A stretch of 64,000 bases of DNA from Deuterostichococcus epilithicus (lineage: Eukaryota; Chlorophyta; Trebouxiophyceae; Prasiolales; Stichococcaceae). The stretch spans positions 310,001 through 374,000 of the forward strand of contig JAVTLE010000018.1 of assembly GCA_033439295.1 (NCBI GenBank). Direction: 5' to 3'. The translations under genes and the position numbers were made by a program. Under the pieces are notes generated by a model that was not told the DNA's origin, searched no databases, and saw only the letters and a program-made list of their open reading frames with translations. This document shows positions 9,080 through 64,000 of this stretch, one piece after another. Within the stretch, counting starts at the first letter, position 1; every line of letters starts with the position of its first letter.

Positions 9080-9250
9080 CTTGTTGGACAGGGGATGCAT
9101 GTGCGGCAGGCCAGGGTGCAGCAATCAGCACCAAGCGCAAGCAGACAACTTGGCCTCGCCTTGGACAGGGCGTTGACGTGCGGCAGGCCCAGCTGCAAGC
9201 ACGGTAGACCGCTGCCCAAGTGCAGCACGTTGGAGAGTGCGCACGCTGGA
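9080..9250 (-). repeat. Three diverged copies of one exon edge (exon-edge echoes)
   Basis: On the minus strand the segment near 9250-9225 (CCTGTCCAGCGTGCGCAC) is followed by two further versions near 9211-9160 and 9128-9080. The two latter copies share CTGCCGCAC then CCTGTCCAA and clearly match each other; the match to the first is about 70%. Spacing is roughly 70-85 bp. The same arrangement of decayed exon edges is seen in the introns of better-understood genes in this window. Confidence 0.55.
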
Positions 9251-10335
9251 CAGGCTGAGCGCTCGAGCAGCGCGGCCGCTAGGAACTTGTCCGGGTTCTG
9301 CCGTCAGGCGCGCGTCGACCAGGTCCACCGCCAGCCTGCGCAGACAACTCTGATAATCACCTGAACGGTTGCCGCAACGTCCTCTGCACCACGAGATGTG
9401 CGTCCACCACACGCACCATCACAGGCTTTCACTTCGAGATGCCGAACGGCACATCGAGGTCAACCACCAGAGCTGCTCTGCATTCCTGCGTGCAACAGAG
9501 CTGCTTGCCCCTCCTCAGTCCTCATCCCTCTCCGTCCCGTCCCCAGAAAGCAAGATCCCTGTGCTGAGGGAAGGGGAGCTGTACAGGAGCAGGATGGTCC
9601 TCGACTCGCCACGCAGTCGGCTATTGACTGCCCAATCGATGACGCGCGGTTGTGCCCCAGTCTGCGACCTCTCCGGCAGTAGCTGCAGCAGCAACATCAA
9701 CAGACTGCCCACCTGAGGTGCCGTTCTTCTGTCATGATTCTCAAGATCCTGAGCAGCACGCTGCACGGCGCGCTTCGCCTGGCCGTTGCAGTCGAAGCAC
9801 GGGTAGCAGCCCTCTGCGCACAGAGGGGATGCCAGCTCGCCTCACTTTTCCCTGAAGTAAATGCGCCGCGCCGTCATGTCAGTGATGTCACGGAGACCGG
9901 CTCGAGCGCAGGAATTGGCAGTGACAGTTGCCAGAGCCTGCAGTGCGTGCCGCGCAGCCTGCAGTCTGTGCTACATTGCGGGTGAGGAACGCGGGGAAGG
10001 GAGGAAGCACGTTCCTCCAGCGGCTTCGCCCGCTGGCGCAGCCAGTCCTAGTTCATGCAGTAGACGAGCCCTCCGGGGCGCAGCAGATGGGCCATCTTCC
10101 CGTACAGAGTGCCGCTCCAGCGCCGCGCATGGCGTGCGACCTCTGAAGCATGAAACAACGGGTTTCGAACCTCATCACCAGCAAGTTTGCAGATGGAACA
10201 TCAGTATATGCCGTGTCCACTATGATGTCCGTTCGCCAGCGCTCGAGGTTCTGCACCTCCTCCAGCTGCACCTCCTCCAGCACCTCCTCCAGGGAGATGA
10301 GGGCTCTGACGTCCACCGCACAATCGTACAGCACT
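9195..10335 (-). CDS. Possible SAM-dependent methyltransferase remnant or divergent gene
   Basis: Three minus-strand segments look like exons. 10322-10210 reads VDVRALISLEEVLEEV, then VQNLERWRTDIIVDTA, resembling a motif-IV strand. 10120-10050 reads LYGKMAHLLRPGGLVYC, the typical post-motif of class I methyltransferases. 9960-9865 reads GLRDITDMTARRIYFREK before a stop. A further stretch at 9325-9230 (NPDKFLAAALLERS) may belong to the same or another gene. I could not join these into a phase-consistent model and did not recognise the substrate family. It may be a real gene with unresolved introns or a decayed one. Confidence 0.3.
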
Positions 10336-11184
10336 CAGCGCACATTTCGCGGAATCCAGATGACAACTGCAACGCGACGCCCCAGCAGCTGAAGGAAATG
10401 ATGCATGCCACTGCTGTAGGTGATCCTATAGCGGGCTGTTGGCGTTGGGGAGACCACGCAGTGACCTTGAGTGGCATGCGCGCTCCCGGGCGTTGGCTGT
10501 CAGCAAGCTGGCTCTGAATTCCGCGTTGCCTTTTGATGGTTTCCAGCGGCTCAGCTTGGTCGAAAATTCGCACTTTTGAATCTGTGTCGAAAAGATTGAT
10601 CGTGCGCACATCCTCAGTGCTCAAGCCTTCACGCTTTACTGCTGTGCAACTGCGATGAGTCTCGGAAAGCAAGCTCGCGCTGGCAAATGGCATATGGCCT
10701 GCACGAGCCCCTGCTGCTCGTCATCACACTCGTACTCCGAGGCCGGTCACGCATCAACACAGGTACGGCAGCAAAGTAGACCCAACGGGTTGAGTGTTGG
10801 GAACGCTTATATACTGTCAACCCGGCATACGCACAATACGCCATATCCCGATCGGTCAATCGCGGCCAGAGACCCAGACACATGTTTGTGCTTGCGAGTG
10901 TACGAACGCTGCACTCGCAGCCTTCGTGGGCCTCAGTGCCTGAGGCGCCACCCCTCAGAGACAGGCCTCCATCTGAACGTGGCGCACCTGGCCAAGGTGC
11001 CTGTGCTTGCGTCGCCCGGTAGTCACAGCGCCAAGGGTTGCTTTGCGCGCGGGCATTCTGGCGCCCAGGCAGCTGCAAAGGCCAGGCCAACCTGACATTC
11101 GAAGGCGTCAGACGCGCCGACTTCCGCAGCCCTGTCGCTGCGTCGCGTGGGGCCTATCGCACGACGGAGATTTCCCCGTCCTAC
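10336..11184. other. Intergenic, nothing recognised
   Basis: No family motif, repeat or credible exon chain was found on either strand between the methyltransferase-like segments and the repeat cassette. Confidence 0.4.
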
Positions 11185-11368
11185 GCACCGTACAAATTCG
11201 GTACGAGATTTCAGGCGTAAGACACTTTCCACCGTCCGTTTGTACCTCAACGACTTTGAAAGAAAGGGAACGATTCCAAAATTTCGGGAAGAAATTTACC
11301 CTTGTAGAGCTGACTTAATCAGGGCCAAACACCCCTACTGGCATGGAACCTACTGGCATGGTTAATCG
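11185..11368. repeat. Left direct repeat of a palindrome cassette
   Basis: About 170 bp from GCACCGTACAAATTCGG to GGCATGGTTAATCG. It matches 12382-12550 almost base for base; the differences seen are two substitutions and an extra 15-bp ACCTACTGGCATGG-type duplication near its right end. It is AT-richer than its surroundings. It has no open frame of note. Near identity implies recent duplication or gene conversion. Confidence 0.9.
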
Positions 11369-12691: not shown

Positions 12692-15600
12692 ATGCTTAGG
12701 GCAGGCGGCCTGCTGCCTCGCCTGCGATCTGCACAGGCGGCAGCGGGTAACAGATCTCTACAGAACCTGCCACAAGGCCATGGGGCACGTGGCTTTGCCG
12801 CTGAGGCGGCACCAGACACATCAGATGATCCCAGCGTGACTGTGCAGGTCGGACTCCATGGCTTCACTTGCAATTGCAGCAGCATGCAGTGTCGCAATAA
12901 GCGGCCACTCTGATCGCGTGGGTCGTCGGCTTGCCATCATAGGCTGCCCGGCTGAGCATGCCTCGCACACCTTCCCGCTTCCACATCAGCGCGTTCACCA
13001 TCACAACTCCACGCGTGTAGTCATCACAGGTAGCAGAACATCAGCCCGGTCCCCTCCTCCGGCACAGCATGGCGAAGCCTACGAGGCCCGCTCTGTGCAG
13101 CGGCAGCGGCACAACAGCATGCTGCCGATGTGCAACATCCCTGCCCCTCCGCAGGTGCGTGACTACATGGGGCACCGCATCGAGCCGCCCAGCACCACGG
13201 TGACGGCCACCAAGTCGGAGCTGCTGGGCTACTTCGAGACGATGTACAAGATGCGGCGCATGGAGATCGCGGCGGACATGCTGTACAAGTCAAAGCTCAT
13301 CCGCGGCTTCTGCCACCTGTGAGTCTTGTCATTGAGTCGCGCCTGCAACGCTCGACAGCCTCGTCGGCGCCGCAGTCGATGTAGATCTCGCGGCGCTCAG
13401 CATGTGGATCCCCGGTGACTTGTCATGAACGCAAAGGTCATAAGCTCATGCAGGCTCATGGGCATTGCTACTTGAGCGGTCACAGCTTGCTGAGGTCTCA
13501 CAAACGAAGGGTGGCCCTCGCAAGGTCACTTCAGTCCTGCCAGCGGCAGGGTTCCACGCTGCTCATAACGAACGTCGATCAGGCGCGCTCAGCAGCGGCC
13601 ACACCAGAACCCCTGTCAATCCCCGCATGCTTCCTGCGCAGGTATGATGGGCAAGAGGCATGCATGGTGGGCATTGGCGCCGCAACGACGGACAAGGACA
13701 GCATCGTGACCAGCTACAGGGACCATTGCACGCACCTGACAAAGGGCGGCACGCTGCTGGAGGTTATGGCGGAGCTGCTCGGCCGAGTCGATGGCGCCAG
13801 CAAGGGCTACGGCGGCTCTATGCACATGTACCGCAAGGTAGGCTCTCTGCCACACGGAGGGCTGCATTCCGCAGGTGGCGTTGCAGTGCATGAGGGACGA
13901 GCCCTTGACAGAGTTCAATTCTGATGGGATCAGCAGTAGGTCGAGTTGAAAGGCGCGGAACTGGAGTGCGCATGCCCAGGGCGCTGCCGCACGCAGCAGT
14001 CGCCGATGTCCGAAAGGCGTTGGAAGGTCGCTGATGTAGTCGCTCAGCTGCTGGCACGGCATGCGTCAACTGCGTCAGAGGCGGTGCAAAGGGTGCAGAA
14101 TTGGGGACTCCGGCCCTGACTGCACAGTGCACGGCATGGTATTGCCCTGGCACATCAACAAACCATCCAGCCGCAGCTCCCACCGAACAGCTTCGGTTCA
14201 GCTCAAGACGAGGTCCTTGCGCTTGCTCACTGTCGTACCTGATACCACAATCGCCTGCAACCCACTCCAGAGATGTTCCTCGCCCACAAAACTGGTGTCA
14301 AACCCCTGCAGGAGACCAACTTCTGTGATGGCAACGGCACCATGGGGGGTACACCCATGCATTTCACTTGTCGAACGGTGTCTGATGTTCCGGCTGCCCT
14401 TTCCTTTGACCGCAGGAGAGCAAACATGCGATGCAGTATGGCGTTGTGGGGACGTGTTATGCTTCTCGCCCTCTGGAACAGTGCCTGACGCTGCTCTCAC
14501 ATGGCCGGCCCGCAGAAGACCAACTTCTACGGCGGCAACGGCATCGTGGGGGCGCAGGTGCCGCTGGGCGCGGGCATGGGCTTTGCACACAAGTACCGCA
14601 AGGACGGCAGCATCTCCATGACGCTGTGCGCATTCCCCGCATCTCTTTGGGAAAGAATAGAGTGCCGAGCTTTCCACAGGGTCGCTGTGCTTGGCAGGGT
14701 CAGCAGGCAGCACGTGGGGTGTCTGCATGCAAACTTTCAAGCGCGCGGCCCAGCGGGCCCTGCATTCGTGTGCTGTTCCTCTCCAGCGCTGCCGCAGCAT
14801 GCCAGCGCTGTCAGTCTCGACGGTTGAGCTTGGCCTTGCTGAAGTCTCACGGCACTAGTGACCGCTGTACCTCGACAGTGACATGGTGGTCAGGGGCACA
14901 CGCAGGAGAGCCGCCCAGCCTCACTGTATGACATCTGCTTGGCTTGCAAAGCAATTTGCAGGCGTCGAAGCTCCCACCAAAAGCGACAAGAACCGCCACA
15001 CCTGCTGATGCAGGTATGGCGACGGCGCGGCGAACCAGGGGCAGCTCTTTGAGGCGCTCAACATTGCAGCGCTGTGGGAGCTGCCCACACTGTTTATTTG
15101 CGAGAACAACCACTACGGCATGGGCACTGCCGAGTGGCGCGGCTCCAAGTCTGCGACCTTCTACTCGCGTGGCGACTACTGCCCGGGCCTCAAGGTCGAC
15201 GGCATGGACGTGCTCGCCGTCAAGCAGGTGCCCACAACCCGTCATGTCTTTCTGTCTTGCCGGCTTGAGGAGGGTGTGACAGCGTGTGGCCCATGCTCCT
15301 CCCCTATTTCGAGCACGAAAAGGAGCTGGCAGCTTTGCCACATGCTTCGTGGCTGTTGGCTCCGGCTGCACGCTTCATCTCTGCGGTAGCACGAGAATGT
15401 AGCCCTGCCGCATGCACGATGTCGTCGGATCCACCATCAGCGTGGATGCCATGCTCCAGGGTGATACTCTTTTATGGAGATCATGGCGCAATCACCCCAC
15501 CACATGGCTTCCGAGTTTCGGACGAGTGTGGCGCCCCGCTTTCCGGCCAGCACCCGTCGCCTCTTCCCCATCTATTGCCATGCAGGCGGTCAAGTCCGTC

Positions 15601-16517
15601 AAAAACCATGCACCGGAGCATGTCACGCTGGTCGTGGAGCTGGACTCCTTACCGCTGCCGTCAAGCCCCGTGATGCTCCAGTTTCCCGCCAGCTCCCTCC
15701 TTCCTCATTGTTGCGCCACCTCGTACAATTGCAGGCTTTCAAATTCGCCAAGGAGTATGCCCTGGAGCATGGCCCTCTGGTAGTGGAGCTTGACACCTAC
15801 CGCTACCACGGGCACAGCATGAGCGACCCCGGGTCCACCTACCGGACGCGCGACGAGATCTCGGCGATGCGCACGCAGCGGGACCCCCTGGAGCAGATCC
15901 GCCGGCTGCTGCTGGACAACGACTTCGCGGACGCCTCGGAGCTCAAGAAGCTGGAAAAGGTGGGTGGTGGACTCGCCCTTGAGCTCGTACAGATTTTCTG
16001 TGTGATCCCCTGGTCGAGAGTGGCGGACTCCCGGCTGCTGCTGGAACAGCAGCTCTGCGGGCGCTCGGAGCTCATGAAGCTTGGAACTGGTGGTATAGGA
16101 GGAGATATGAAGGAGAACCGGAATTCAGCAGGCCGTCTAGCCAATCGCATCCCAACCGTCTGGGGCAACTTGCATCTCGTAAAGGTCTGAGCGGGCGGAC
16201 AGGCGTCAGGATCGAGGTCCCGCTGCCGTCGGCGAGGCTGGACTCCAGCAAAGGGGAACACTTGGCTGCTCAACCTTTGCGCAGAAAGTAAAGTGGTCAT
16301 GGCAGCCGACTGCCTGCTGTTCTGTCAGCAGCCACGATTTGCAGAAATGCGCCGTGTTCCCCTTGCGCAGAGCATCAAGAAGGACGTGGACAACGCGGTG
16401 GCGCAGGCCAAGCAGTCGGCCATCCCGCCGCCAGAGGCGCTGTGGCGCAACATCTACCGCGACCCCGTTGGCTCCTCCGTGCGCGGCCTGGACTCCACCG
16501 TCAAGGTCGCGCTCTGA
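12692..16517 (+). CDS. Pyruvate dehydrogenase E1 component, alpha subunit, mitochondrial
   Basis: It encodes the thiamine-diphosphate-dependent decarboxylase subunit of the mitochondrial pyruvate dehydrogenase complex. Seven exons join with consistent phase into about 403 aa: 12692-12847, 13155-13318, 13642-13837, 14516-14625, 15014-15227, 15735-15959, 16371-16517. The N-terminus is Arg/Ala-rich with RGFAAEA, a typical mitochondrial presequence. Family blocks follow in order: [37 protein letters not shown]; the ThDP motif [10 protein letters not shown] through [10 protein letters not shown]; and the regulatory loop [22 protein letters not shown], whose serines are the PDH kinase targets in other eukaryotes. 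Similarity is to mitochondrial rather than plastid E1-alpha. Several introns contain decayed copies of the adjacent exon edges (listed separately). The repeat cassette lies directly upstream. Confidence 0.95.
14304..14460 (+). repeat. Two echoes of the E1-alpha exon 4 edge
   Basis: The real exon 4 begins at 14516 after CCCGCAG (AAGACCAACTTCTACGG). Copy one at 14304-14355 has CCTGCAG then GAGACCAACTTCTGTGATGG and GGCAACGGCA..TGGGGG, roughly 78% identical. Copy two at 14411-14460 is weaker but still reads QYGVVGT against NGIVGA after its own CGCAG. Offsets from the real exon are about 204 and 100 bp. Both are in an intron and keep an AG acceptor. Confidence 0.7.
15581..15670 (+). repeat. Echo of the E1-alpha exon 6 start
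   Basis: After TGCAG at 15581-15585 the sequence reads [20 protein letters not shown], against [20 protein letters not shown] in the real exon starting at 15735. DNA identity is about 70% over 70 bp, offset 149 bp. The copy loses the TYRYHGHS block, so it cannot substitute for the exon. Confidence 0.85.
15998..16095 (+). repeat. Echo of the E1-alpha exon 6 end
   Basis: CGGCTGCTGCTGGA and GCCTCGGAGCTCAAGAAGCT of the real exon (about 15900-15955) recur as CGGCTGCTGCTGGA and GCTCGGAGCTCATGAAGCT, followed by GTGG at the matching donor position. Offset is about 120-130 bp. It lies in the intron downstream of exon 6. Confidence 0.8.
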
Positions 16518-21715: not shown

Positions 21716-21751
21716 GAAACTGGTGAAGGCAATCTCTTGCACATGATCACT

Positions 21752-45900: not shown

Positions 45901-47411
45901 GAGTGGCGCGGCCAAACAGTGCACCGGCACAATGGAGCGCCGCCTTCTAGCTTCCGACAGCACCGGCGCTGCAGGGCGGTGATCATGGCAGAGATTTGGG
46001 TAGCATGGCGAAATGAACCATCGTCAGCATCCAGTAGCAGCACGCTGTGCAGTAGGGCGGATTGGCGGCATTATGTATCGCGTTACGTGTGGCGAGCAAG
46101 ATGCCTAGCACGACGCTCGGCTCGCAGGCAGGGAGCCATCGTGCCCCTCCCTGGAGCTATATCGAATGGAAGCGCGATGCTGCCGCCACGTCATATTGCA
46201 GCTGCGGCGGCGAGCGCATGACCCTGAACCCTCGAGCAGCTGCAGGACCGAGCGCCCCTTCCTCAGACCGTCTGCCGACCTGGAAGCGGGAGAGTCTTCC
46301 CGCGCCGTGCAGCAGGATCGTGAAATTTGCTCGCTCGTGGAACTTGTCCACTTGAAACCCTTCCCACCCTGGAGCGGAGCCGCACCTGCAGCTGGTCCTC
46401 CTGGTCCGCGTGTGCATAGTAACAGTTGAGCGCCTCCTTGTTGCCAACCTGCATGCAGCGCCGCAGAAATCGGCAATCAGGGCGAGGGCGGGGCGAGTCA
46501 TGTCAACCGCTGAGCGGGGCTTTGGCTGCGATGCCAAAGCCACAGCCTCCCGGATCCGGCGGCGCTGAAGCCCGGGCCGGGCGCGTGCTCCTGCAACAAC
46601 ACGCAAGGCCTGGGCTGTGACCCACCAGGTGGCGTGCACACGTGTTGCAGGAACATAACTCGCCTTAAGCTTTTCATGCGTCTCCCGGATCGTCTTCCCG
46701 TCCGCCTTCTTGCGCCAGTTGTGGCCGTCGCGCCTGCGGGCAAGCACGAGCACAGTCCTCAGCGAGGCTGGCGCTTGCGTGGGTGACTCATGCAGTACGC
46801 GCCTCTGAATTGGCAGCCGTGGCGTTGTAGGCCACCTTCCAGCGTGCCTCGGCAGCAGCAATCTGGAGGTTCCACCCCAAAACTGACCTGAAGAAGCGGG
46901 TGACTTTGCGGTTGAACAGGTAGAGGGTGCCGCCTGCACCCGGTTGCAGGCATGTGATGTCAGCGAGGGGTTGATCATGAGGCTGCCCTCCAAATGCGAG
47001 TATCGGAATACATGAAGTATCATGACATACAGGGGTTACAGATGCGGCCGGCCCACTTAGGGCAGAAGCAGTGCCTTCCGACGCAGCAGACTGTGAGGGT
47101 CTGTTGAGGGGTGCAACCAGGCGCAAGGTCCAGCGTGGCGGCGCTCGCAGCGAGGACACGGCGTGAGCCCAGCACTCGCCTGGGGGACAGATGGGCGTCT
47201 CCCGGTTCAGCTGGAAGCGGTACTTGGAGTAGTTCTGCAGCAGGTCCAGCACCTCTGTGTTCTTCAGCCAGCTCGTGCGGGCCTTGGTGATCAGGTCACG
47301 CACGGGCTTAGGCAGCGGCGCCTCTCCGCCCCGTTGCAGCCCCCGGGGCGAGTCCCCCGGCTCCATGGCTGTGCTGCCAGCACGTGGGCGCTCCGTGAGC
47401 CGGGGCTGCAC
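42952..47411 (-). CDS. CG-1 domain (CAMTA-like) transcription factor with Gln-rich tail
   Basis: The CG-1 DNA-binding domain spans the first five exons. 47411-47180: ARTSWLKNTEVLDLLQNYSK, then YRFQLNRETPICPP. About 46938-46895: GGTLYLFNRKVTRFFR. About 46735-46664: DGHNWRKKADGKTIRETHEK. About 46445-46388: VGNKEALNCYYAHADQEDQLQ. From 45854: RRCYWMLEGDDSIVLVHYLA. This is the order of plant CAMTA proteins, which bind CGCG boxes. Two introns use GC donors (CAG|GCGAGT at 47180, AAG|GCGAGT at 46664). Downstream exons are Ser-, Gly- and Gln-rich, e.g. WQQQQLQQQAVAQAAL near 44040 and a proposed last exon ending SGFGGG at 42952. The TIG, ankyrin and calmodulin-binding IQ regions of plant CAMTA were not found. 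Exon borders after 45600 are approximate. Confidence 0.8.
45902..46056 (-). repeat. Two echoes of the CYWMLEGDDSIVLVHYLA exon start
   Basis: The real exon start lies at 45854. Copy A (45977-45902) and copy B (46056-46016) on the plus strand repeat GTGCACCGGCAC, GGCGCTGCAGGG and CATCCAGTAGCAG against the real GTGCACCAGCAC, GGCGCTGCAGGG and CATCCAGTAGCAG. Spacing is about 120 and 80 bp. Both lie in the intron just upstream of the exon in transcript sense. Confidence 0.85.
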
Positions 47412-50729: not shown

Positions 50730-53700
50730 TTGCTGGTAACCTGTCGGATTCGCTTCAGCTGCAAACCCCCCCGCGCCTGGCGCGCAGCACTCCTCGTTGC
50801 CGGTGTAGCGCCTTGCACTCAGTGGTGGAGCAGCCGAGCGTCCAGCCATGCACAGCGGCCTACACGCCAGCAGGAACTGCACGCCGGCCAGCTGCAGTGG
50901 GCGACCGTCAGTTCCAGACAGCTTGCTCACGCGGCACCCCCATGGGCAGCAAAGCCGCAGCGGCAGCGCTCCAGTGCGGTGCAGGTAGGCTTTCGTAAGC
51001 ACTTGTAGCTGGTTGCTTGCACAAAGACGCTCGGTTGCGCACGCATGCACACAATTGCGCTTGCATGCTTGATGCCGTGCATTCATGGCCTCTGAACTGC
51101 TCTGGAACTGACAGCTGTGTGCACTATCCACCAGGCAAAACGAGCAACCGCAGGGTCAGCCCAACAGCTGGCGCAGCGGCAGCAGCTACACAAATGCACG
51201 ATGGCAGCTAGCGGCGAGCGCTACAAGCCTCCAGAGCCCAGCCGCGCCGCTCCGCACGCAGCCCATCCAGCTGGTGAGACGCGCTGCACGTCTCATATGG
51301 GTTCAATGTCCTGCCTTCCCTCTACTGCAACACCGGTCCAGGAGTGCCAGCCAGGCTGGACGTCCCTGTCACGATGCACTGCTCAGCAGGCCCATGTGGG
51401 GACTGCGCTTCCTGCAAGCGCCCTGCAGACTCTTTCACTGTGTGCACAGATGGCTCATTGCCGCAGACCATGCATGGCCGCTCGCGAGCACCTTCTTAGC
51501 AGACTTTTCAGAGTCGTCAGCCGCTCTTCTCCAATTCCGCCGCAGGTGGACGAGAAGGTTGGGGTGCTGCTGTTGAACCTTGGCGGCCCAGAAACGCTGG
51601 ACGACGTGCAGCCCTTCCTCTACAACCTGTTTGCCGACCCCGACATCATCCGGCTGCCTGGACCCGCCAAGTTCCTGCAGCCGCTCGTTGCCCAGGTGGG
51701 CTTCCGCCGCCTGCGCCCCTTGCGACGCGAGTGCCCCTTACTGTGGGCTGATGTCTGGAGGACGATTGCCGGTGCAGTCGTTCCGGCATGGTGCCTGTCT
51801 CGATGCAGCAGCTCCTGTCGCAGATGGCAGCCCATGATGTTGTGCGCTGCATGTGCTGGCTGCCCACACATTCTGGGCCCGTGCTCCAACCTCGTTAAAT
51901 CTGCCCACTCGGCTCCCCCTCGTCGCCATTCACCAACGCATCTGCCTCTATCCCTGTCTCGGCCCTCCCTGGCGCAGGTGATCTCCTCACTGCGGGCACC
52001 GAAGAGCTCGGAGGGGTACCGTGCCATCGGCGGCGGCTCGCCCCTGCGGCGCATCACCCTGCAGCAGGCGGACGCGCTGTCGGAGGCGCTGTCGGCGCGC
52101 GGCCAGCCCGCCAGCGTGTACGTGGCCATGCGCTACTGGAAGCCGTTCACCGAGGACGCCGTCGCGCAGGTGTGGCAGGGGTTCCTGGAGCAGGGTGATG
52201 TGTCCTTGCTGCCGATACAAGTGTTCCAGGCACTCGTTTGCGGTGCGGCAAACGCGGTCATACTTGCTGATGCCGATGGCGCTCTGGCGACCACACCCAG
52301 TGGCGGCGTTGAAGGACTTTCGCTAAACGTATATACTCAGCTCATGGCACATAGTATGTATCCCAATACCTACGAAGCATTCTCACGATGTCGGTTCATG
52401 TCATGCGCAGCTCAAGGCGGACGGCATCGGGCGGCTGGTGGTGCTGCCGCTGTACCCGCAATTCAGCATATCCACTAGCGGTAGCAGCCTGCGCCTGCTG
52501 GAGGCACTGTTCAAGGCAGACCCCCAGCTGGCCGCCATGCCGCACACTGTCATCCCCTCCTGGTACCAGCGCCGCGGCTACATCACCGCCATGGCCGACC
52601 TCATCCAGGTGAGATGTAGGGTTTTTTCCAGGCTGTGCCAAGGCAACAACAGGATGCTTTTGGCACCGCCGCCGGCGCGCGGCGGCTGCGGCGTCCAGCC
52701 ATGGGACGCAGCTGCCGAGCAGCTGCTGGCATCGGCAGAAACTTGGGTGCAAGACGCTCGGTTGGCATGCGGGTGCTGGCAGGAAGCAGGCGCCGTCTGT
52801 GCAAGTGCAGCCAGCTCAGCAGGCAGCGGCTGCTCTCGTTAGCCAGCTGGCGGCCATTGGTCTCCGCCTGTCACAGAGCCTCAGGGACGATCGGCATCCG
52901 AAATCGAGCTGCCTTTGCCTCGCAGGAGGAGCTGGCAAAGTTCTCGAAGGAGGCGGGCAGCCCTGAGATATTCTTCTCGGCGCACGGTGTGCCGCTGTCC
53001 TACGTGGAGGAGGCGGGCGACCCTTACAAGGTGCAATCCCTAAACCTTGACCTTTTAAACCTGAAACGAAGGATGCTGCTGCTCCTGCTGCGGCGCAGCA
53101 GCAGCAGCGGCAACAGGTCCACACACCTCGGCCTTTGGCGGCCGTGTTGTCCATGCCTTGTGCACGCCAGCTCATGCGCACCGCAGCGCGAGTCGGACAT
53201 CAGCACAGCACCCTGTTTGCGACCGGGCTGGTGGTTGCCGCGCAAGTCGTGCCTCCGCATGCCTTCCCCTTCCCTACATCATGCTCTCCCTCCTGCCTCC
53301 GACTCCAGGAGGAGGCAAGGGAACGTGTTGCGGCCATCATGGCAGGGAATGTGCTGCGGCCGCGCTATTGTTTCGTGACCCTTCTCTGTGGCTGCACCTC
53401 ATCAGGAGGAGATGGAGGAGTGTGTCGCGGCCATCCTGGCAGAGCTGCGGGCTCGCGGCGTGACCAACAGCTACACCCTGGCATACCAGTCTCGCGTGGG
53501 CCCTGTCGAGTGGCTCAAGCCGTACACCGACGAGTCCATCAGGTGCCGCCCCGGGTTGAGAGCCGCCACTCCCTGCCGGTGCTTTCCCGTTCCTCGCAGC
53601 TGCGCCACTTGTGCATTTCTACAGTCCCTTCACTGCTGTGCACAGCACAGGCGGTAGTGGCCTCGGCCTCCGAAATGTTGCAGGACTGCCTTGAGTCACG

Positions 53701-54882
53701 CACAGCTGGGCCCTCGTCCCGTGTCGCAGGGCGCACCCAGCGAGGCTGCCCCCCCCCTTCATCTCTCCCCGTCCCCCTCCCTCCCCCCGCNTGCCCCCCA
53801 CACAGGCAGCNGGGCAGGAACGTCCGACCCGAGGCTGACCCCCCTTGNCCNCCCTCTGTACCCCCGCTCACAGGCAGCTGGGGCGTAACGGCTGCCGCTC
53901 GATGCTCGCGGTGCCCGTCTCCTTCGTCAGCGAGCACATCGAGACGCTGGAGGAAATGGACATGGAGGTAAGCAGCAGTTTCCGATTTCATGCACATAGT
54001 TTCATAAGCTCGCAAAGACGAATTGGCATTGTGTCCATGAACGATGGCAATACAAATATTCACCAAGTTTCACACAAAACTAACAGTATCGGGAGCTGGC
54101 GGAGGCGAGCGGCATCCGCGCCTGGCGCCGCGTGCCCGCGCTCAACACCAACGCCACCTTCATTGGCGACCTCGCGGACGCGGTGCTGCAGGCGCTGCCG
54201 TTTGCGGGCAGCATGGCGGGCTCCAACCCGGGCGACTCCCTGGTGCCGCTGGGTGCGACCCCCCACCACCGCCAGAGCAGCCCCCCTTGTCTTTTCTGGG
54301 TGTGTGGCGCTGCCGTGTGCTGGCAGCACGGTGGGCTCTCGATTGATGGGACCGCTGTGTGCGCCCTTCCGGCTGCGCCGCTCCACTTGTCGCTGCTGAC
54401 ATAAGTGCTTGTGCGCACGGCGGTCGGTTTTGTTTCTATGTTAGGGGTCTGGTTCTGAGGGGTTTGGGGTTCAACACACTCCTTCGTCCACTGGCCTGAG
54501 CAGCTGACTGGCAGCATGTGGTGGTTGCGGACGCGCTGTCAGACCAATAATCGCAGTGCTGCTGAGTTGTCACCTCGTGGGCAAGTCGGAGGGGCACAGC
54601 TGGGCGCCTGCGACCACCTTGCCTGGTCACGGCCTTCCACAAGGCAAAAAAGGCAAAACCAAACGCTCACCAATGAACATTTCTGCAGGTGACGTCGAGG
54701 CGCTGCTGGGCACCTACGACCGGGAGCGGCGGGTGCTTCCGATGCCCATGGCGCAGTGGTCGTGGGGCTGGACGCAGTCGGCCGAGACCTGGAACGGTCG
54801 CATCGCAATGCTGGCCATCGTAGTCGTGCTGCTGCTGGAGGTCATCACCGGGCAGGGCGTGCTGTCGGGTCGCCTGGAGTGA
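50730..54882 (+). CDS. Ferrochelatase, plastid, with C-terminal chlorophyll a/b-binding segment
   Basis: It inserts Fe2+ into protoporphyrin IX, the last step of heme synthesis. Ten exons join in phase to about 518 aa: 50730-50984, 51208-51273, 51546-51695, 51978-52169, 52411-52608, 52926-53030, 53406-53542, 53874-53967, 54087-54252, 54689-54882. The first two exons give a transit-like leader ([19 protein letters not shown]). Core motifs: [51 protein letters not shown], the catalytic [30 protein letters not shown], and [20 protein letters not shown]. The tail [24 protein letters not shown] is a light-harvesting-type helix, as in plant FC2 and cyanobacterial enzymes, which places the protein at the thylakoid. 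The ATG at 50730 is the only in-frame start seen in exon 1. Ambiguous bases lie in the intron at 53792-53851. Two introns hold exon-edge echoes. Confidence 0.93.
53308..53372 (+). repeat. Echo of the ferrochelatase exon 7 start
   Basis: After CTCCAG the sequence reads [14 protein letters not shown], against [14 protein letters not shown] at the real exon start (53406). DNA identity is about 79% over 38 bp, including the block GCGGCCATC. Offset is 97 bp. An AG acceptor is kept, but the continuation is lost. Confidence 0.85.
54307..54380 (+). repeat. Echo of the ferrochelatase exon 9 end
   Basis: GCTGCCGTGTGCTGGCAGCA at 54309 copies GCTGCCGTTTGCGGGCAGCA at 54194-54213. The first 31 bp are about 87% identical and similarity fades towards the donor. 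Offset is 115 bp, inside the next intron. Confidence 0.85.
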
Positions 54883-56310: not shown

Positions 56311-59300
56311 TCACTCCTCGGCCAGGTCGGCGAGGCCGCCCCCGCCGGAGGTGGGGTTCTGCACCACCGCGGCCTCGCGCAGGTCGATGCGCACCAGCTC
56401 CCCGCCGCCGGCCGCCGGCCGCTGCCCCGCCTGCTCCACGATGTCCTTCAGCTGCTGGTCCCGCTGCGCCTTTGCCGCCTGGGCGAACAGATGCGACATA
56501 TGCTTTGGCTTCAGTGACTGGCTGTCCGCGTGACCAGCTCGTCGACGCCGGGCACGCGCGAGCGGCTCGAGGCCGGGTTTCTTCGGCAGGCCAGGCGCTC
56601 GCTGCTGCGGCCGCGCAGCAGCGGCAGACGGTCAGGTCCCCGCGCTCCCCTGGCCCGGCGCCCGTCGCACGCCTCTGTGCCACGGGCGCCTACCGGCCGG
56701 CACCCAGGGCAGCGACTGGGAGCTCCTACCGAGCGCCGGCAGTCCAGCGGCGGCAGGTGTTTGCCAGGTTGCGGGGTGTCAGGGTTCAACACAAAGCGCA
56801 TTGTGCTGATGCAGCAGCTGCAGACGTAGTTCGCCATGGTACGGGCCTAATTTGATGCTTCGATCCCCAGCTAGAAACAAGAACCGACACAGGACCCAAA
56901 CTCACTGTGCCGATGGAGCGGCTGGAGACGTAGGCCTCCTTGATGCGGGCCTGGTCCTGTGTTTCGATCCCCAGAGACGACAAGCGAAGAAAGGAGCCAG
57001 AGACAAGAGGCGACAAAGGAGCAGGCTCACTGTGCTGATGGAGCGGCCGGAGACGTAGGCCTCGACACGGGCCTGGTCCTTTCTGAGCGCCTCCTCTGCG
57101 GCGGCATACTCCTTCGGCAGCTTCTGGCGGTACCTGCGGCAGAATCAAGATGAGCGCAAATGCGTCAGTTCACTACTCGAACCATAGGGTTCGGATGGAG
57201 CTCAGACTTGCTGAGATCTTAAAAGTTGCTACCAAAGGCTGTTGGATTGCTTTGGCTGATATGTGTCTTCTGCTGACAAATTTGAAGTCCGCTCAAGGTC
57301 GTTTGCGGTGCCTGTGCGGCGCACGGGGCGCGGCCCCGGGCTGGGCATGCACGATGGGACGGCAGGAGGACAGCCTCCTAAGCAGCGCCTCGGCACCAAA
57401 CCCACTGCCGCTTCGGTGCGCGGCGGCATCTGGGGGCACTGCCGCTCCACTCCTGGACTGCCTGTCCGGCCTACTGTTCGCCAGTCGCCAGCCAGAACGA
57501 CACAGCAGCACAAGTGCAGGTGTGTAAGGAACGGATGTGCGGAGGGGGGTAGGGGCGTGCGGGCGCGCTCACCAGGGGTGCGCCTCGATCTCGGGGATGG
57601 TGATGCGCTCCTCCTCCTTGGGCACCAGGATGTGGTCGAGCAGGTCCTTCACCTCAGCGCTCAGCTGCGGCGGCAGGACAGTCAGCTGTGAGGCGACAAA
57701 AGTTTGTTGTGTCAGCTGGCGGGTTTGGTGCCCTGTCCAGGCACCAGGATGCGGGCCAGCAGGTCCGCCTCGGCGCCCGGCTGCGCGGCGAACATAGAGG
57801 GAAAGCATGCGTATGAGCTTGCTTGTTGGGACAATATCGGCACCAGGATGTGGTCCATCAGGGCCTCCGCCTCCCTGCTTAGAGACACTGGGTACCAAAG
57901 AGCGGCAACGAGCCAGATTGTAGCTACGGGCTCTCAAACGGCACCTGCACATCACCCAGACACGCGCCGTCCACGGGGTGACGCACCTCCTGCGCCGCAT
58001 TCTTGATGTGGGGCACCTCGGATGCCATTTCGATTCTGTAGAGTGTACGAAACCCTCTGATTGGAGCAGCTTGAGGATACTGCGCACCTTCTGCACCGCC
58101 TTCTTGATGTGGGGCACCTCGGACCAGGAGCCCTTCGTCTGCTGCGCCCACACCTCCGTGTGCGCCTCCTTACAGTTGGGGTCCGGGTTCTCCGTGTGGT
58201 CGAAGGGGAAGGTGCCTGCGAAGGGATACGGCATCCAGCTTGCGATGCCAGCATTCGGTATGCTCGAAACAGCCGTGCGCTCTGCCTTCTCGTTGCTTTG
58301 GACGGTTGGAAGGGGAATGGTGCCTGCGCGGAGGCCCTGCATACACATGGCCTGTGGGAAAGCCGCCAAGATGGGGCACGACAAGATGGTGACGAGATCA
58401 GGTTTTGGTCCTAGCACAGGCAGGTAGGCAGGCTGGCTGGCTGGACAGCGCAGCGGCACCCAGCTGGCCGACTGGCCCCCTTCCTGGGACGTGCACGCTT
58501 GCAAAGCGCAGGGTGTACAGCACACATATGGCTTGGCATGTTTAGGGCATGCCGCTGGCCGGCTGTCGCAGGCTAGTGGGTGAACTGCTGGCTGCTGCGA
58601 GCGAATGGACTTGGCGGCCCACCCAGCAGCATGACGATGAGCAGCACGCCGGCGGCCCACACGTCGACGGCAGTGCCCAGGTACCCCTGCCCGTTGGTGT
58701 CCCCGTCCTGCAGCTGCTCCGGCGACATGTACACCGGCGTGCTGCATTGAAGCAACAAAAGGAGCTGTCAACGACGACGCCAAGTGCAGATGCGGGGGCG
58801 GTCCCCCACTGGTGTTCCGTCCTGCAGCTGCTCCGGCGACATGACACTGGCGTGCTGCGTCCGAGTGACAGCAATTACTTTCAACAGGTGTGTCGAACAC
58901 AGCAAAATGTGGGGTCCGGAGCACCCCTGCCCGTTTGCGTCCCCACCCTGCAGCTGCTCTGGCGACATGTATACCGGCCAGGGTGGTGCTGCCGGGCGAG
59001 TGGCAGCACAGGGCACCGAGCGTATCTTGTCCGACTACAGAAACGAATGTTCAGGGTTGCCAGGTGCACATGATCACATTGCAGGCAGCTAAGAGGGAGT
59101 TTGCAAGCCAACACAGCCGCTCATACAGCAGCAGGCGCATGCCGAAACTACCCATGTACGCATCTGCAGCGCGCGTGAGTTTGTGTCAGGGGCGCCTGAG
59201 GAAGCAAGGCGCGCACCTGATCCATCAGTGACTGTGTACCTGACTTTGAGATGTCGTTCAGATTCACAAGCCGGGCCGCACCCAATGTGGGTGATCATGC

Positions 59301-61684
59301 TGCGTCTGGACTCCTCCCACTGCTGCACGCCCGGTTGCAGACGGCCCAGAAACGTTTCTAGGTTCGACACGCGCTGTCAGAGGCCCTGTGAACAGCATCG
59401 CACCCGATGTGGGTGAACATGTTGCGGTTGGACTCCTCCCACTGCTTGGCGAAGCCAAAGTCGCACAGCTTCACGCGCCCCGGCGTCTTGCCGTCCAGCA
59501 GCGTGTTGTCCAGCTTCAGGTCCCTGCACCATGCATTACGTTACACATTGGTGAACCCAGGACCTCAATGTTTCCAACCACAACTCCATGAAGCCAGGGC
59601 GTCGTGCCGCGTCAGCATGCTGCCCGACTCCAAGCGGACCCGCCTCAGCCGGCCGGCTGGGAGCCCCAGCAGCTGCCTGGCGGCTCCCCCGCTGCCGATG
59701 CACCGCAGCGTGCGCGCCGCGTCCCATACAGCTCTGTCCCTCACAATGCAAATGCACAGGGAACCCATCCACATCGGGAAAACACAGGACCTACACGCAG
59801 CCGCACCTGTGCGCCACATTGTGCGCGTGGCAGTAGGCCACGGCGGTGACGAACTGCCGGAAGTAGTAGCGGGCCTCGTCCTCCGACAGGAACAGCCCCG
59901 TCTGCTGCGCGTGCTGCCACTTGTCCGCCACGTAGCCTGCAGGGGTTCGGGTTCAGGGTTTGGGGACCAGCGAGGCGACACATCATGCCGGGCCAGAGCG
60001 GCCGCCTGCGGGGCTGGTCCAGGCCGGCTGTCTGAGACACAGCTGGAGCGGCAGCGGGGTCAGCGACAGGCCATTGGACATTCCACCCACTGCGTCGCAC
60101 GTCGCGCAAGTGGGCATGCTGTCTACCTCCGCCTCCCCCGCATCTCCTGCTCTGCTGTGCTCTCTGCTGTGCACTGCTCCCTGCTCTGCTCTGGCCCGCC
60201 AATGCCGCCGCCTCGCACTCTGGTCGCTCATCACGAAGCAGCCCAGCAGGCAGCCCTACCGCGTGCAGCAGAGGTGCCGCCTGCCACTTGTCTGGCGACT
60301 CCCCCAGTCGGGGCGACTCTCTCGGGAGGGAGCGCAGGGGAGAAGGGTTGGGGTTCCCACCTGTGAGGCTGTTCCCCGCGGCGTACTCCATGACGAGGCA
60401 CAGGTGGTGGTCAGTGAGCAGCACCTCCTTGGCCTCGACGATGTTCACGTGGCCCTCGCCCAGCTCCGCCTGGATCTGCGGCACAGTGGGGCATGGCGGC
60501 GGCGGTCAGCAAGGGGCCAGCGGTCGCGGTGGTGGTCGCAGACCGCGAACGGCCGGGCGGCGGAGGCCCGCGTGGGGCCGGGCGGCAGCGCCGCGCCACC
60601 CGGCTGGATGCAGGCGCGTTGGCCGGAAACGCGCTTGCAGCGCAGGCCGCCGGTCAGCCGCACCGGCTGGGAGTGCCACACTCCAGCCTCCTTCCTCGGC
60701 AGTCAGCCGCGGAGCGATCCGGCACAGCTGTCAGCCAGCCCGCGATGCATGCAATGTATGCCCGTGATGCAGGCCGCAGGCCGTCCAGCGGAGCTCCAGC
60801 GCAGCGCTGCGGACTTTGAACCATCGCCCATCGGGCCGGCTGCAAGCTTCTAGGCTCCCAGAGACTCCGTATACGTCATGCACCTGACAGACCCCGGCCC
60901 ATACGTGCAGGTCAAGTACAGGTCAGGCCTGGTGGAACCCTAGCGCGCAGGCTGGCGACCCATGCAAACTTCTTGTGAAGCCTTGCACGCCAGCTTGCCC
61001 CAGCAACCAAGAGGCTGAAACACATGATGCTGCACACAGGTCCGTGACGAGCCGGATCCGATTCGTGCACTGCAGATCAGTTGGCTGTGCAAGGCCATCG
61101 CATGATTTTGCGAGCGGTTCTGCCCAGTTGGGGCCGGGTCCAACGAATGTTGCATTGCATTGCTAAGCACCATACGCAGTCTGACCATCGTCCCTTCGTC
61201 GCTGCCGGCCAGCTGTGTGGCAGAGCTACAACATCCGCGACGGGGAGCAGTGCCCCTCCGACTACCCGCCCGCCTCTGTCGAAGCGGCAGAGGACAAGGG
61301 TCGGCACTACGAGCCGTCTAGTGACCCGCTGCAACTGCCCGGCGTGCGACTCAGCAGAATCGTACACACTGCTGAGTAAGAGGGGGCTAGGCGCACCGTG
61401 ACTTCCCGCAGGATGTTGGGCATGATAACCTTCGGCAGCGGCCGCTTTATGAGCTTGATCGCCACCTCTTCGCCGCTCTGCAGGTCCTTGAACAGCCCTG
61501 TGTCGCCGGTGCCGCCCTTGCCCAGCTGCTGGATATACTCGAATGACTTTGCGAGCATCGCGTCTGGCGCTGCGGGCTTGGGCTTCGTGTGGCCCCCGCC
61601 ATGGTGATGTTTTGCCGCTGGCTTTGAGGCGCCGCCAGTGGTGGGCGCTCCGGCGTGCGACTCCTTAGAATTAAAGCAGCCCAT
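56311..61684 (-). CDS. SnRK2-like serine/threonine protein kinase with MGC acylation motif
   Basis: Nine exons join in phase to about 420 aa: 61684-61397, 60475-60361, 59936-59807, 59523-59404, 58741-58623, 58215-58088, 57664-57573, 57133-57031, 56478-56311. The start MGCFNSKES fits N-myristoylation at Gly2 and palmitoylation at Cys3, suggesting membrane attachment. Kinase motifs in order: [10 protein letters not shown] loop, [91 protein letters not shown]. The CDFG and DHIL..RITI..I..HPW pattern is closest to SnRK2 (OST1-type) kinases. The tail is a charged helix ending LADLAEE, without the acidic ABA-box of plant SnRK2. At least ten exon-edge echoes occur in its introns, one of them a possible extra exon (56906-56956). 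Confidence 0.9.
56800..56850 (-). repeat. Decayed echo of kinase exon 8 end
   Basis: Minus-strand [15 protein letters not shown] against [14 protein letters not shown]. The donor GTGAGC has become ATGCGC. It sits 106 bp beyond the better copy at 56906-56956, which itself is about 125 bp beyond the real exon end. Confidence 0.8.
56906..56956 (-). CDS. Candidate 51-nt cassette exon duplicated from kinase exon 8
   Basis: Minus-strand ACAG is followed by 51 nt coding [17 protein letters not shown] and then GTGAGT. It copies [16 protein letters not shown] at the end of the real exon 8 and would add exactly 17 codons in phase between exons 8 and 9. Identity to exon 8 is about 90% over the last 35 nt. 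Both splice sites are canonical, the donor better than that of exon 8 itself. It could be an alternatively spliced or constitutive exon; only transcripts can tell. Confidence 0.5.
57739..57885 (-). repeat. Two echoes of kinase exon 7 start
   Basis: The plus-strand word GGCACCAGGATG occurs in the real exon at 57621 and again at 57739 and 57839, spaced 118 and 100 bp. Translated on the minus strand the copies read [13 protein letters not shown] and [13 protein letters not shown] against [14 protein letters not shown]. About 80% DNA identity each. Both lie in the intron between exons 6 and 7. Confidence 0.9.
57983..58030 (-). repeat. Echo of kinase exon 6 end
   Basis: Minus-strand [13 protein letters not shown] followed by GTGCGT copies [12 protein letters not shown] followed by GTGCGC at 58128-58088. 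About 87% identity over 38 bp; offset about 105 bp. Confidence 0.9.
58300..58336 (-). repeat. Echo of kinase exon 6 start
   Basis: The plus strand GGAAGGGGAATGGTGCCTGCG matches GAAGGGGAAGGTGCCTGCG at the real exon start (58215). Offset about 107 bp. The acceptor GCAG is kept. Confidence 0.8.
58810..58990 (-). repeat. Two echoes of kinase exon 5 start
   Basis: The real edge at 58741-58680 codes [18 protein letters not shown]. Copy one (about 58858-58810) is about 95% ident over 50 bp but lacks one base within it, so it is out of frame. Copy two (about 58990-58920) reads [18 protein letters not shown] at about 87% identity. Spacing is 113 and 127 bp. Confidence 0.92.
59277..59326 (-). repeat. 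Echo of kinase exon 4 end
   Basis: Minus-strand [14 protein letters not shown] followed by GTGCGG copies [14 protein letters not shown] followed by GTGCGA at 59449-59404. About 90% identity over 48 bp; offset 124 bp. Confidence 0.92.
59941..59965 (-). other. Telomere-like motif beside the kinase exon 3 acceptor
   Basis: On the minus strand CCCCAAACCCTGAACCCGAA runs straight into CCCCTGCAG, the acceptor of exon 3. Confidence 0.6.
60225..60310 (-). repeat. Echo of kinase exon 3 start
   Basis: Minus-strand [23 protein letters not shown] resembles [17 protein letters not shown]; the plus-strand word CTGCCACTTGTC is shared exactly. It sits in intron 2 about 365 bp from the real exon, with a small insertion. 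Confidence 0.65.
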
Positions 61685-62017
61685 CGCCAGATGGTTGCCC
61701 TCTGCCCCGGCGTGTGCACGCCGATCGCCTAGCGCGCCGTTGGCCTCAGGGCTTCCAGCTGTGGTATCTACAGCAAAGCCAGTTTCTTGGCTGCAGCGCG
61801 GGTGCCGGTGTGCCAGCTCATGTGCATTCGTAAGTGTCCACTGTCCAACAGACGCTATCTGTTCTGCAAGACGAGAGTCTTCCCTGTCTGACAGCAACGA
61901 TCAACGCGACACACGAGTGACGAGTGAGCATCAGAGCCTGTACAAAAGCGCCTCTAGCTTCCATTCAAGTGTGCTGCAGGCGTCGACCGGTGCTCGCTCA
62001 CTACCAGCTGCTGCCGT
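61685..62017. promoter_or_regulatory. Divergent promoter region, kinase / glycosyltransferase-like gene
   Basis: 333 bp between the kinase start codon and the proposed start of the plus-strand gene. Both promoters and leaders should lie here or in the first exon upstream. No specific element was recognised. Confidence 0.4.
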
Positions 62018-64000
62018 TTGAACCGGGCCACCTCTTTGGACATATCACACCCTTGTGCTACCTCCGTCATCCTCACCCCGTCGCTGAAACTCAACCGGCG
62101 GAGTGGACAATCTTTCACCATCCTCCCCTCAAGGCGACCAGGCCGTCGCACAGCTGCCAGCGGCCCCCGCGCGGCTTTCAGCATTGCGCCGCAGCAGTTG
62201 CGGAAACGTCTGCGCGCCTTCAGCGGCCTGTGCAGCCGCCGCTGGCTGCTGCTGCTGCTGCTCTGCGCCGCCTGCTGCGCGTCATTTGCACCTTGGTGGA
62301 CGGCATCACCTGGCGCCGGCGCCACTGGCGGCACAGACCGCGTCGGCGAAGAGGCACTTGACGTTTTTGGTGAGAGCAACTGCTGTCTGATCCATGTGCT
62401 GCCTACTGTCTCTTATGTGAGCGCATTGAGGCCGTTTGCGAGCCCTGTGCAAACCGCACATAGATGCATGCTCGCTCTGCAGATTATGGCTCAGCCGCAC
62501 CGCCGCATCCAGCGTGCAGGAGAGGCCACCGCCATAGCGACTGGGCGGCAGAGGACCTTCAAGAGCATCGCACAGCCTCCCGCTCAGGCCTGAACGCGTC
62601 TGGCCTGTGCAGGCGTGGCGGTGAAGCCAACATGCATCAACCGGGCGGCGCTCGCGGCGCTGCGGCGCCACCTGCGGCCACGCAGCATCCACGTCGTCAC
62701 CGTGACGGCGCGGCAGTGCGTCGCCTTCGAGTCCTGGGCGCCCAACATTCGGTGCCACCTGCAGGTACGTGCTCCAAGAGCATTGCGCGCCCCGCGCTAC
62801 CTGTCGGCTGCAGAGCGGGCCGCGAGTCCATGGCGGTGCGGCCGATCCGAATGGGCGCATCTCATCAGGAGGCAGCAGCAAGGGGCCAGCAGGAAGGCAG
62901 CTCCTGGCGCTCGCAGAATAGCAGTGGAACTGCGCAGGGCAGCACCTTCAGACAGTTCTCGCTTTGCGCCGTGACGTGCCTCGACCACAAGCCAACCCGG
63001 GCATATGAACCAGCCAAGCCTCGATCCGTGCTCAACGCCGCAAACCTGCAGGACAGCTTCCTGCCGAATGTGACCAAGGCAGCGGTGGCGGCGCGCCTGG
63101 ACGCGCTGCACGGCGCGGACGGCGGCGGCCGGTTCCGTGGGCGTGACCTGTCCGGCTGGTACCTGCAGCAGGTGGGGAGGTTCGAAGAGGCTTCGCTAGG
63201 TTTTTCACCACAAGGTTTTTTACCGCTGGGTTTGTGAACGCCTGCTGGCGCCAGCCATGCATGCACACACCTCGCTGCTGCCTGGGCACAGCTGGCAGCC
63301 CGTCCAGCTTTGCCTGCTCGCCGTCCCACGGCCGCGGCGCTCTGCACGCCGAGTGCCAGCGCACACAGGCCACCAGGTTGCTGCACCGAGCTCGGAGGGC
63401 ATTACCAGCCTGGACAAACCCTAAACCCTAAAACCCAAAACCACCTCACGATGCACGCAGTTCCTCAAGCTGGGCGCGGCTGCGGCGCTGCCGGGACTCT
63501 CGGAGCGCTTTCTGATCTGGGACCTGGACATGGTGCCGCTGCGGCGGCTGCGCCTGTTCTGGCCGCCGCCACCCGGCGCCCCTGCCGGTGCCCCCGTGCA
63601 GGTGAATGTACCTGCAAGCTGGTCGCATGAGCGTTGATTGCCTCATGCGTTCGCTCACTCTGGGCGATGTTCATGTCAGACCTGCCGCCATCGCACGCCG
63701 TCACGCCTGGCTGCTGATGCGCCTCGGCCAGCGCTCCTGGGGCCTCGCCTAGACCGTCTGCACAGGCTCACAGGACCAGAAGCAACCACAAGTGACTCGT
63801 CTCAATGCGCGCAGAACATCGTCAACATAGGCGGTGCACACGCCGAAAGCTACGCTGGCACATACAGCCGCCTCTTTGGGAAGGAGCTGCTCGCGGCGCC
63901 GGATGGTTCGTCCTTTGTGACCCACTGGATGGTGGGTTGCGCATTCTGCACCAAACACTGCTCCACCCTACACTACTGTCTGCAAGCCAGCCTGATGCAA
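62018..64000 (+). CDS. Putative type II membrane glycosyltransferase-like protein, incomplete at the right edge
   Basis: Five exons join in phase: 62018-62369, 62613-62764, 63052-63171, 63461-63601, 63815-63931; the gene continues past the window. Exon 1 encodes basic residues then LCSRRWLLLLLLCAACCASF, a signal anchor typical of Golgi type II enzymes. Exon 2 has IHVVTVTARQCVAFESWAPN. Exon 3 has DSFLPNVTKAAVAARLDALH and GWYLQQ, exon 4 FLKLGAAAALPGLSERFLIWDLDMVPLRRLRLF, shown here only in part, where WDLDMV is a DxD-like GT-A metal site. Exon 5 has NIGGAHAESYAGTYSRLFGKE and SSFVTHWM. This pattern resembles DUF6492-type putative glycosyltransferases. Substrate unknown. The start at 62018 is the first in-frame ATG; a later one is possible. 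Confidence 0.6.
63345..63415 (+). repeat. Echo of exon 4 of the glycosyltransferase-like gene
   Basis: GCACGC at 63346 begins a stretch that loosely follows the real exon 4 (acceptor at 63455-63460). GAGCTCGGAGGGCATTACC and CCTGGAC correspond to CTCTCGGAGCGCTTTCTGA and CTGGGAC. About 65-70% identity, offset about 105 bp. Confidence 0.5.
63416..63437 (+). other. Interstitial telomere-type repeat in an intron
   Basis: AAACCCTAAACCCTAAAACCC: two perfect CCCTAAA units plus a degenerate one, 23 nt before the acceptor of exon 4. Confidence 0.85.

What the first reader, a model, noticed from the sequence alone, without database searches (positions are those of the whole stretch)
9080..63415. Exon-edge echoes: introns carry decayed tandem copies of the neighbouring exon borders
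In at least seven genes (E1-alpha, deubiquitinase, CG-1 factor, ferrochelatase, SnRK2-like kinase, glycosyltransferase-like gene and the 9.1-kb locus) an intron contains one or two diverged copies of the adjoining exon's edge. Copies start at an acceptor or end at a donor as the real edge does, sit on the intron side, and are mostly spaced 100-125 bp. Identity ranges from about 95% to barely detectable, as expected of repeated events of different age. Tandem duplication across an exon border can create introns and exons, but such a pervasive, similarly spaced pattern is not one I know to be described. It may show that introns here grow by serial short tandem duplication, perhaps with a preferred unit length, and leave decoy splice sites that the spliceosome must ignore.
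Basis: partly seen in the sequence, partly recalled or inferred. Interest (0 to 1): 0.93.

Follow-up and report, generated by a model that had tools for sequence, protein, structure and literature searches.

The report
Introns holding decayed exon-border copies
In this alga-like genome about one in eleven of the tested introns carries a worn copy of the last or first fifty or so bases of the exon beside it, best explained by repeated short tandem duplications across splice junctions that lengthened the introns.

Summary
Same-strand repeats at offsets of about 100-160 bp are common in the window and in 16 other 10-kb stretches; one dinucleotide shuffle of each gave none. With home-made gene models, the terminal 60 bp of exons match their own intron at score >=36 in 25 of 640 cases against 1 of 3840 swapped-intron controls; exon bases 60-120 match in 0 of 428 (controls 5 of 2568), exon edges against the wrong-side intron in 0 of 266. 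Echoes decay like free DNA, with frameshifts and nearly flat codon-position mismatch. Echo-bearing introns are longer (median 440 vs 254 bp).

The one young case (L015) is a tandem duplication across an acceptor, 74 bp intron plus 59 bp exon, with an older in-register copy upstream. Most other echoes have no recognisable intron half; simulated neutral tandem duplication fits part of the data but not the sharp stop at the splice site.

Best reading: serial tandem duplications across splice junctions, mostly old. A known kind of event, unusually pervasive and junction-centred here. The glycosyltransferase-like case was not confirmed.

The parts
14305..14348 (+). E1-alpha: acceptor-side echo; exon copy 14509-14552, exon starts at 14516, offset 204
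15581..15659 (+). E1-alpha: acceptor-side echo, called as an exon (15586-15669) by my gene finder; exon copy 15730-15807, exon 15735-15959, offset 149. Solved E1-alpha chains skip the extra residues exactly.
16031..16093 (+). E1-alpha: donor-side echo; exon copy 15902-15963, exon ends at 15959, offset 129
36851..36916 (-). Deubiquitinase: donor-side echo; exon copy 36979-37043, offset 128; a second echo at 36749-36790, offset 234
   Evidence: UCH match in the preceding exon, 23.8 bits against a cut-off of 23.9
45907..45982 (-). CG-1 factor: acceptor-side echo with its own AG, partly called as an exon; exon copy 45786-45862, exon 45596-45848, offset 121; a further 17-base exact copy at 46025-46041, offset 197
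53306..53345 (+). Ferrochelatase: acceptor-side echo called as an exon (53309-53350); exon copy 53403-53442, offset 97
   Evidence: extra unaligned residues against solved ferrochelatases
54306..54338 (+). Ferrochelatase: donor-side echo; exon copy 54191-54223, exon 54087-54252, offset 115
56789..57080 (-). SnRK2-like kinase gene: tandem array of three units, offsets about 105-125, similarity covering exon and intron parts (192 columns, 69%)
57740..57873 (-). Kinase: two acceptor-side echoes (57740-57789, offset 119; 57839-57873, offset 218); exon copy 57621-57674
57982..58022 (-). Kinase: donor-side echo, partly called as an exon; exon copy 58083-58123, offset 101
58810..58978 (-). Kinase: two acceptor-side echoes (58810-58858, offset 115; 58923-58978, offset 240); exon copy 58683-58745, exon 58623-58741
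59277..59324 (-). Kinase: donor-side echo ending in its own GT; exon copy 59399-59446, exon 59404-59523, offset 122

Best explanation
Tandem duplications of about 120 bp (80-170) that span a splice junction, roughly 50-60 bp of exon plus 60-75 bp of intron, have been fixed many times in this genome. After each event splicing keeps using the splice site that leaves the protein unchanged, so the spare exon piece with its own AG or GT becomes intron and the intron grows by one unit. Later events can use the existing repeat in register, giving a second echo near twice the spacing. The spare piece then decays freely. Its exon half stays recognisable because the partner is a conserved exon; the intron half diverges from both sides and soon vanishes, so old events look like exon-edge-only copies. 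SHOWN: the copies, adjacency, border specificity, spacing, free decay, longer introns, one young full tandem unit with an older in-register copy. INFERRED: that most other echoes began in the same way, and how splicing chose between the two sites.
For: L015:9410: two abutting 133-bp units, intron part 71 of 74 and exon part 53 of 59 identical, and an older copy upstream in the same register (0 of 500 shuffles as good) whose alignment starts only 11 bp before its acceptor. Kinase array with exon and intron parts alike. Intron-half similarity at p<0.02 in 7 of 41 pairs. Copies only in the adjacent intron, on the correct side: 25 of 640 against 0 of 266 wrong side and 2 of 1616 non-adjacent. GT/AG retained at the echo edge. 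Ordinary substitution spectrum. Simulations with echo divergence 0.2-0.4 and indel ratio 0.2-0.3 give exon-intron to intron-intron ratios of 17-35 (observed 41 to 3) and median identity 0.79 (observed 0.79).
Against: With L015 set aside, donor flanks are no more alike than swapped flanks (45.0 vs 46.1, n=20) and acceptor flanks barely (57.2 vs 48.8, n=20, p=0.024); simulated tandem flanks average 64-122. 23 of 41 matches end within -8 to +3 bp of the splice site, against 0.15-0.38 simulated. 1 of 41 runs more than 15 bp into the intron, against 0.04-0.59 simulated. Exon bases 60-120 are never seen copied (0 of 428), which random unit placement does not predict. In L004 two echoes are 97% alike over 35 bp and unlike outside it. 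In the young L015 pair the exon half differs more (6 of 59) than the intron half (3 of 74).
Confidence: 0.6

Rival explanations
1. Junction-bounded copying: only the exon end (about 50-60 bp) plus some 5-14 bp of intron is copied and placed about 65 bp away in the adjoining intron, for instance by templated repair or template switching coupled to transcription or splicing. The spacer was never part of the copy.
For: Sharp stop at the splice site, no donor flank similarity, limit to the last 60-70 bp of exon, hard ends of the L004 echo pair.
Against: The young L015 case and the kinase array carry the intron half; 7 of 41 pairs keep residual flank similarity. No known machine does this, as far as I recall.
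Confidence: 0.2
2. Gene conversion from exon to echo after tandem duplication keeps the exon half alike while the intron half drifts away.
For: Would explain an exon half better kept than the intron half, and the alike core of the L004 echo pair.
Against: Mismatches are not patchy (25 alignments, combined p 0.95).
Confidence: 0.07
3. Echoes are kept by selection, as alternative or poison exons or as splicing decoys.
For: My gene finder called several echoes as exons; of echoes with an intact GT, 8 of 10 score above the 5th percentile of real donors, of those with AG 5 of 9.
Against: Near-flat codon-position mismatch (0.163, 0.196, 0.218), 41 of 45 indels break frame; echoes cover part of the exon only; solved E1-alpha chains skip the called echo.
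Confidence: 0.05
4. RNA-mediated copying (cDNA or reverse splicing), or a mobile Introner-like element.
For: Exact splice-site boundaries in many copies.
Against: No exon-exon junction beyond the echo edge (34 tested, 11.8 vs 12.0); copies only next door; a 401-bp CG-1 echo region found elsewhere in the genome only an exon match; no echo intron matched another locus in the window.
Confidence: 0.05

Closest known systems
Tandem genomic duplication across an intron-exon border in the potato RdRp gene (PMC4974935; abstract and Results section read)
   Same: Duplicated stretch crosses an acceptor and carries 3' splice signals plus the start of the exon; part of an exon copy becomes intronic.
   Different: One gene, recent, and a new intron is made; here an existing intron grows, on donor and acceptor sides, in many genes, mostly old.
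Exonic tandem duplication with a proto-splice site as a source of introns (Drosophila, PMC2891723; abstract and passages seen)
   Same: One copy of a duplicated coding piece is intronised.
   Different: There the duplicated piece is exonic with AG/GY; here the young case straddles an existing junction and no new intron position is made.
Exon duplications with degenerate copies in introns (Exonize, PMC12343006; outline and abstract seen)
   Same: Within-gene exon similarity to introns, including degenerate copies.
   Different: The abstract speaks of full-exon duplications in 4% or more of vertebrate genes; here only the last 33-70 bp of the exon, at a near-fixed spacing.
Introners (PMC9860276; outline and abstract seen)
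   Same: Genome-wide growth of intron sequence in aquatic eukaryotes.
   Different: Introners are families alike between loci; echoes resemble only their neighbouring exon.
Long introns of Chlamydomonas relatives (PMC8226300; passages seen)
   Same: Median intron length 198-343 bp there, about 246 bp here; why introns stay long is left open there.
   Different: The passages seen say nothing of exon-border copies.

Membership tests
Tandem duplication across an exon-intron border | Two abutting copies, each with intron and exon part | tested here: inconclusive
   Met in L015 and the kinase array; flank similarity at p<0.02 in 7 of 41 pairs; not recognisable in most
Tandem duplication across an exon-intron border | Copies in direct orientation and next to the parent | tested here: met
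Tandem duplication across an exon-intron border | Single-copy state in a relative | not testable with these tools
   no related eukaryote genome is held
Tandem or mutually exclusive exon duplication | Whole exon copied with reading frame kept | tested here: not met
   partial copies, 41 of 45 indels break frame
Introner element | Similar introns at many unrelated loci | tested here: not met
   one 401-bp region searched genome-wide and window self-comparison; other echoes were not searched genome-wide
Introner element | Target-site duplications or terminal inverted repeats | not tested
   -
RNA-derived copy | Exon-exon junction in the copy | tested here: not met
   34 echoes, 11.8 vs 12.0 in controls

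The most novel reading that the evidence does not exclude
A duplication process in this lineage is centred on splice junctions: it copies about 55 bp of exon end, with little or some intron, and places it one near-fixed spacing into the adjoining intron, on donor and acceptor sides alike. It would be a splicing- or transcription-coupled engine of intron growth and not the visible tail of random tandem duplication.
Probability: 0.2. Interest if true: 0.88.

Novelty: new variant of a known kind. Interest (0 to 1): 0.62.

Why it matters
How introns reach and hold their lengths is open; a comparison of Chlamydomonas relatives says the advantage of introns well above minimum length is unknown (PMC8226300, passages seen). 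Here introns carry readable traces of growth in units, each tied to an identifiable parent exon, so intron growth can be counted and roughly ordered in time. Each echo is also a natural pair of a real and a spare splice site, useful for asking how the spliceosome chooses. It warns gene annotators too: my gene finder took several echoes for exons, and solved E1-alpha chains show one of them is not in the protein.

Tried and rejected
Chance and composition: shuffles, reverse complements and swapped introns do not give the signal; further inside the exon (-160..-100 and +100..160) it is 1 of 124 and 0 of 121, near controls (2 of 744, 3 of 726). Misassembly: echoes with 10-30% divergence occur on many contigs. 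Error-prone copying at birth: the spectrum looks like ordinary decay (220 transitions, 161 transversions, CpG excess). That script divides non-CpG changes by all bases and overstates the CpG excess; by hand, on C and G only, it is about twofold. Gene conversion: no patchiness. Duplication of whole minimal introns: considered; echo-bearing introns are too long for it alone. CG-1 paralogue in L002: no echo above chance (p 0.52). One search used gap costs too low to trust its alignment ends.

Simulations: uniform ages with random placement give too few exon-intron pairs per intron-intron pair (1.6-1.8) and too much flank; older ages fit better, and the oldest, most indel-rich setting even matches the flanks, but with too few pairs above 85% identity (0.09; observed 11 of 41). 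No setting reaches the observed share of matches ending at the splice site. All settings rest on assumed indel sizes, exon constraint and age range.

Rows left out: 54 exon-exon pairs of 116 rows (many from two coding minisatellites, but some are echoes called as exons) were not used; L015 was set aside in flank tests and; 159 of 479 introns were too short or had short flanking exons. The 41 pairs come from fewer borders, since several exons have two echoes. Gene models are home-made; apart from five genes with Pfam or PDB support they are unverified, and UCH lies just under its cut-off. Species not identified: a green alga is my inference from recalled plant-like gene names, GC and intron structure.
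Full report
What was checked. The window is C16:310001-374000 of a 46.8-Mb genome of 21 contigs. I fetched 16 stretches of 10 kb, at the same fixed position on 16 other contigs, later four more, one of them next to the window. An ungapped scan of all offsets from 20 to 1000 found direct repeats piled up at 100-160 bp: 24 of 45 clusters at score >=22 in the 16 stretches and 14 of 52 in the window; one dinucleotide shuffle of each gave 0 at that score; inverted pairs at these offsets were 0 and 2. Two coding minisatellites and one repeat array contribute to these counts.

Gene models. No gene finder was at hand, so I wrote a hidden Markov gene model, seeded with a few window exons and trained on the data: 46 genes, 412 introns, median intron 246 bp, mean exon 143 bp. 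Solved structures support E1-alpha, ferrochelatase and the SnRK2-type kinase, Pfam the CG-1 exon and, just under its cut-off, UCH. In E1-alpha the solved chain runs from query residue 227 straight to 255, skipping an echo that my model had called as an exon.

Where the copies are. In 224 kb, at offsets 60-320, 41 pairs join exon and intron; 3 join two intron places, two of which are echo-echo pairs; 7 are intergenic, 5 of them in one array at 11.7-12.3 kb. In 264 kb, with the known arrays masked, exact repeats of 14 bases or more at offsets 100-180 are exon-intron 13, intron-intron 4 (all in two echo families), intergenic 1, mixed 2, exon-exon 3, although introns make up half of the DNA. The first and last 60 bp of introns against the rest of the same intron give 1 of 253 each, against 0 of 1518 each; at score >=30 they give 6 and 3 of 253. 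Exon edges against introns two to five away: 2 of 1616; against the wrong side: 0 of 266.

Anatomy. Single-unit offsets run from 83 to 172 bp (28 pairs, median 119), then 204-289, with one at 343. In a gapped search with 70-bp exon edges, 40 hits in 28 of 320 introns reach 33-70 bp into the exon, 3 of 40 at the limit of the query. These introns are longer: median 440 vs 254 bp. 23 of 41 ungapped matches end within -8 to +3 bp of the splice site and 1 of 41 runs more than 15 bp into the intron. A GT is kept within 2 nt in 10 of 18 donor echoes and an AG in 9 of 16 acceptor echoes (chance 0.25 and 0.28); of these, 8 of 10 and 5 of 9 score above the 5th percentile of real sites.

How they decay. 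Mismatch at codon positions 1, 2 and 3 is 0.163, 0.196 and 0.218, and 41 of 45 indels break frame. The substitution spectrum is ordinary and mismatches are not clustered (25 alignments). So the echo looks unconstrained. Third positions of the exons have changed little; with GC3 of 0.83 I take this as codon constraint, and it makes dating unsafe.

Origin. L015:9410 shows a young state: two abutting 133-bp units, 74 bp of intron (71 identical) and 59 bp of exon (53 identical). Upstream lies an older copy in the same register whose exon part is readable and whose intron part is lost beyond the last 11 bp. That is tandem duplication twice at one border, and shows how an older event comes to look like an exon-only copy. 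The kinase array at 56.8-57.1 kb keeps both parts, and 7 of 41 pairs, L015 included, keep some intron-half similarity at p<0.02; the two groups as a whole reach only p 0.057 and 0.17 there.

What does not fit. With L015 set aside, donor flanks are as unlike as swapped flanks and acceptor flanks barely better. I simulated random neutral tandem duplication with selection on exons. Uniform ages predict 1.6-1.8 exon-intron pairs per intron-intron pair; echo divergence of 0.2-0.4 with more indels predicts 17-35 and fits identity and match length. But matches ending at the splice site are 0.15-0.38 in every setting, against 0.56 observed, and with the exon part limited to 30-70 bp mean flank scores are 64-122, against 57 and 45 observed. 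Random units also fail to explain why exon bases 60-120 are not seen copied. For acceptors a need to keep the branch point and tract in the copy that is used could do it (inference); for donors I have no such reason. The L004 echo pair, 97% alike over 35 bp and unlike outside, stays unexplained.

Print. Eight searches and six papers opened, of which I saw passages, abstracts or one Results section, gave isolated cases of border-crossing or exonic tandem duplication (PMC4974935, PMC2891723) and tools for exon duplications (PMC12343006), but no account of a genome whose exon borders are echoed in introns at a near-fixed spacing. The library lacks most subscription journals, and the Chlorella NC64A genome paper was not held, so this does not prove absence. 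I file the finding as a new variant of a known kind.

Noticed in passing
window 11185-12543: 162-bp direct repeats (98.8% identical) at the two ends of a 1.36-kb stretch that holds 142/164-bp tandem units and inverted copies: looks like a small young mobile element with terminal repeats.
   Followed up: no
window 4414-4993: Minisatellite with a 30-bp base unit (higher periods 60-270) inside a predicted coding region.
   Followed up: no
window 1514-1638: Rfam tRNA match of 49 bits over 125 bases, not reported by ARAGORN in its bacterial setting: perhaps a tRNA with an intron.
   Followed up: no
window 1028-1434: Echo-like direct repeats at offsets 136-137 and 256 where my models call no gene: perhaps a missed exon.
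   Followed up: partly
window 63416-63442: Telomere-like AAACCCTA array inside a contig of 1,058,402 bases, far from its ends.
   Followed up: no
window 22000-36000 against L004, L014-L017: Echo density differs strongly between genes: two marginal ungapped matches and one gapped hit over 14 kb of one intron-rich model, 2-3 echo-bearing introns per 10 kb elsewhere.
   Followed up: partly
L015:9203-9469: In the young tandem unit the exon half differs more (6 of 59) than the intron half (3 of 74), perhaps because the younger event was an in-register exchange with the older copy.
   Followed up: partly
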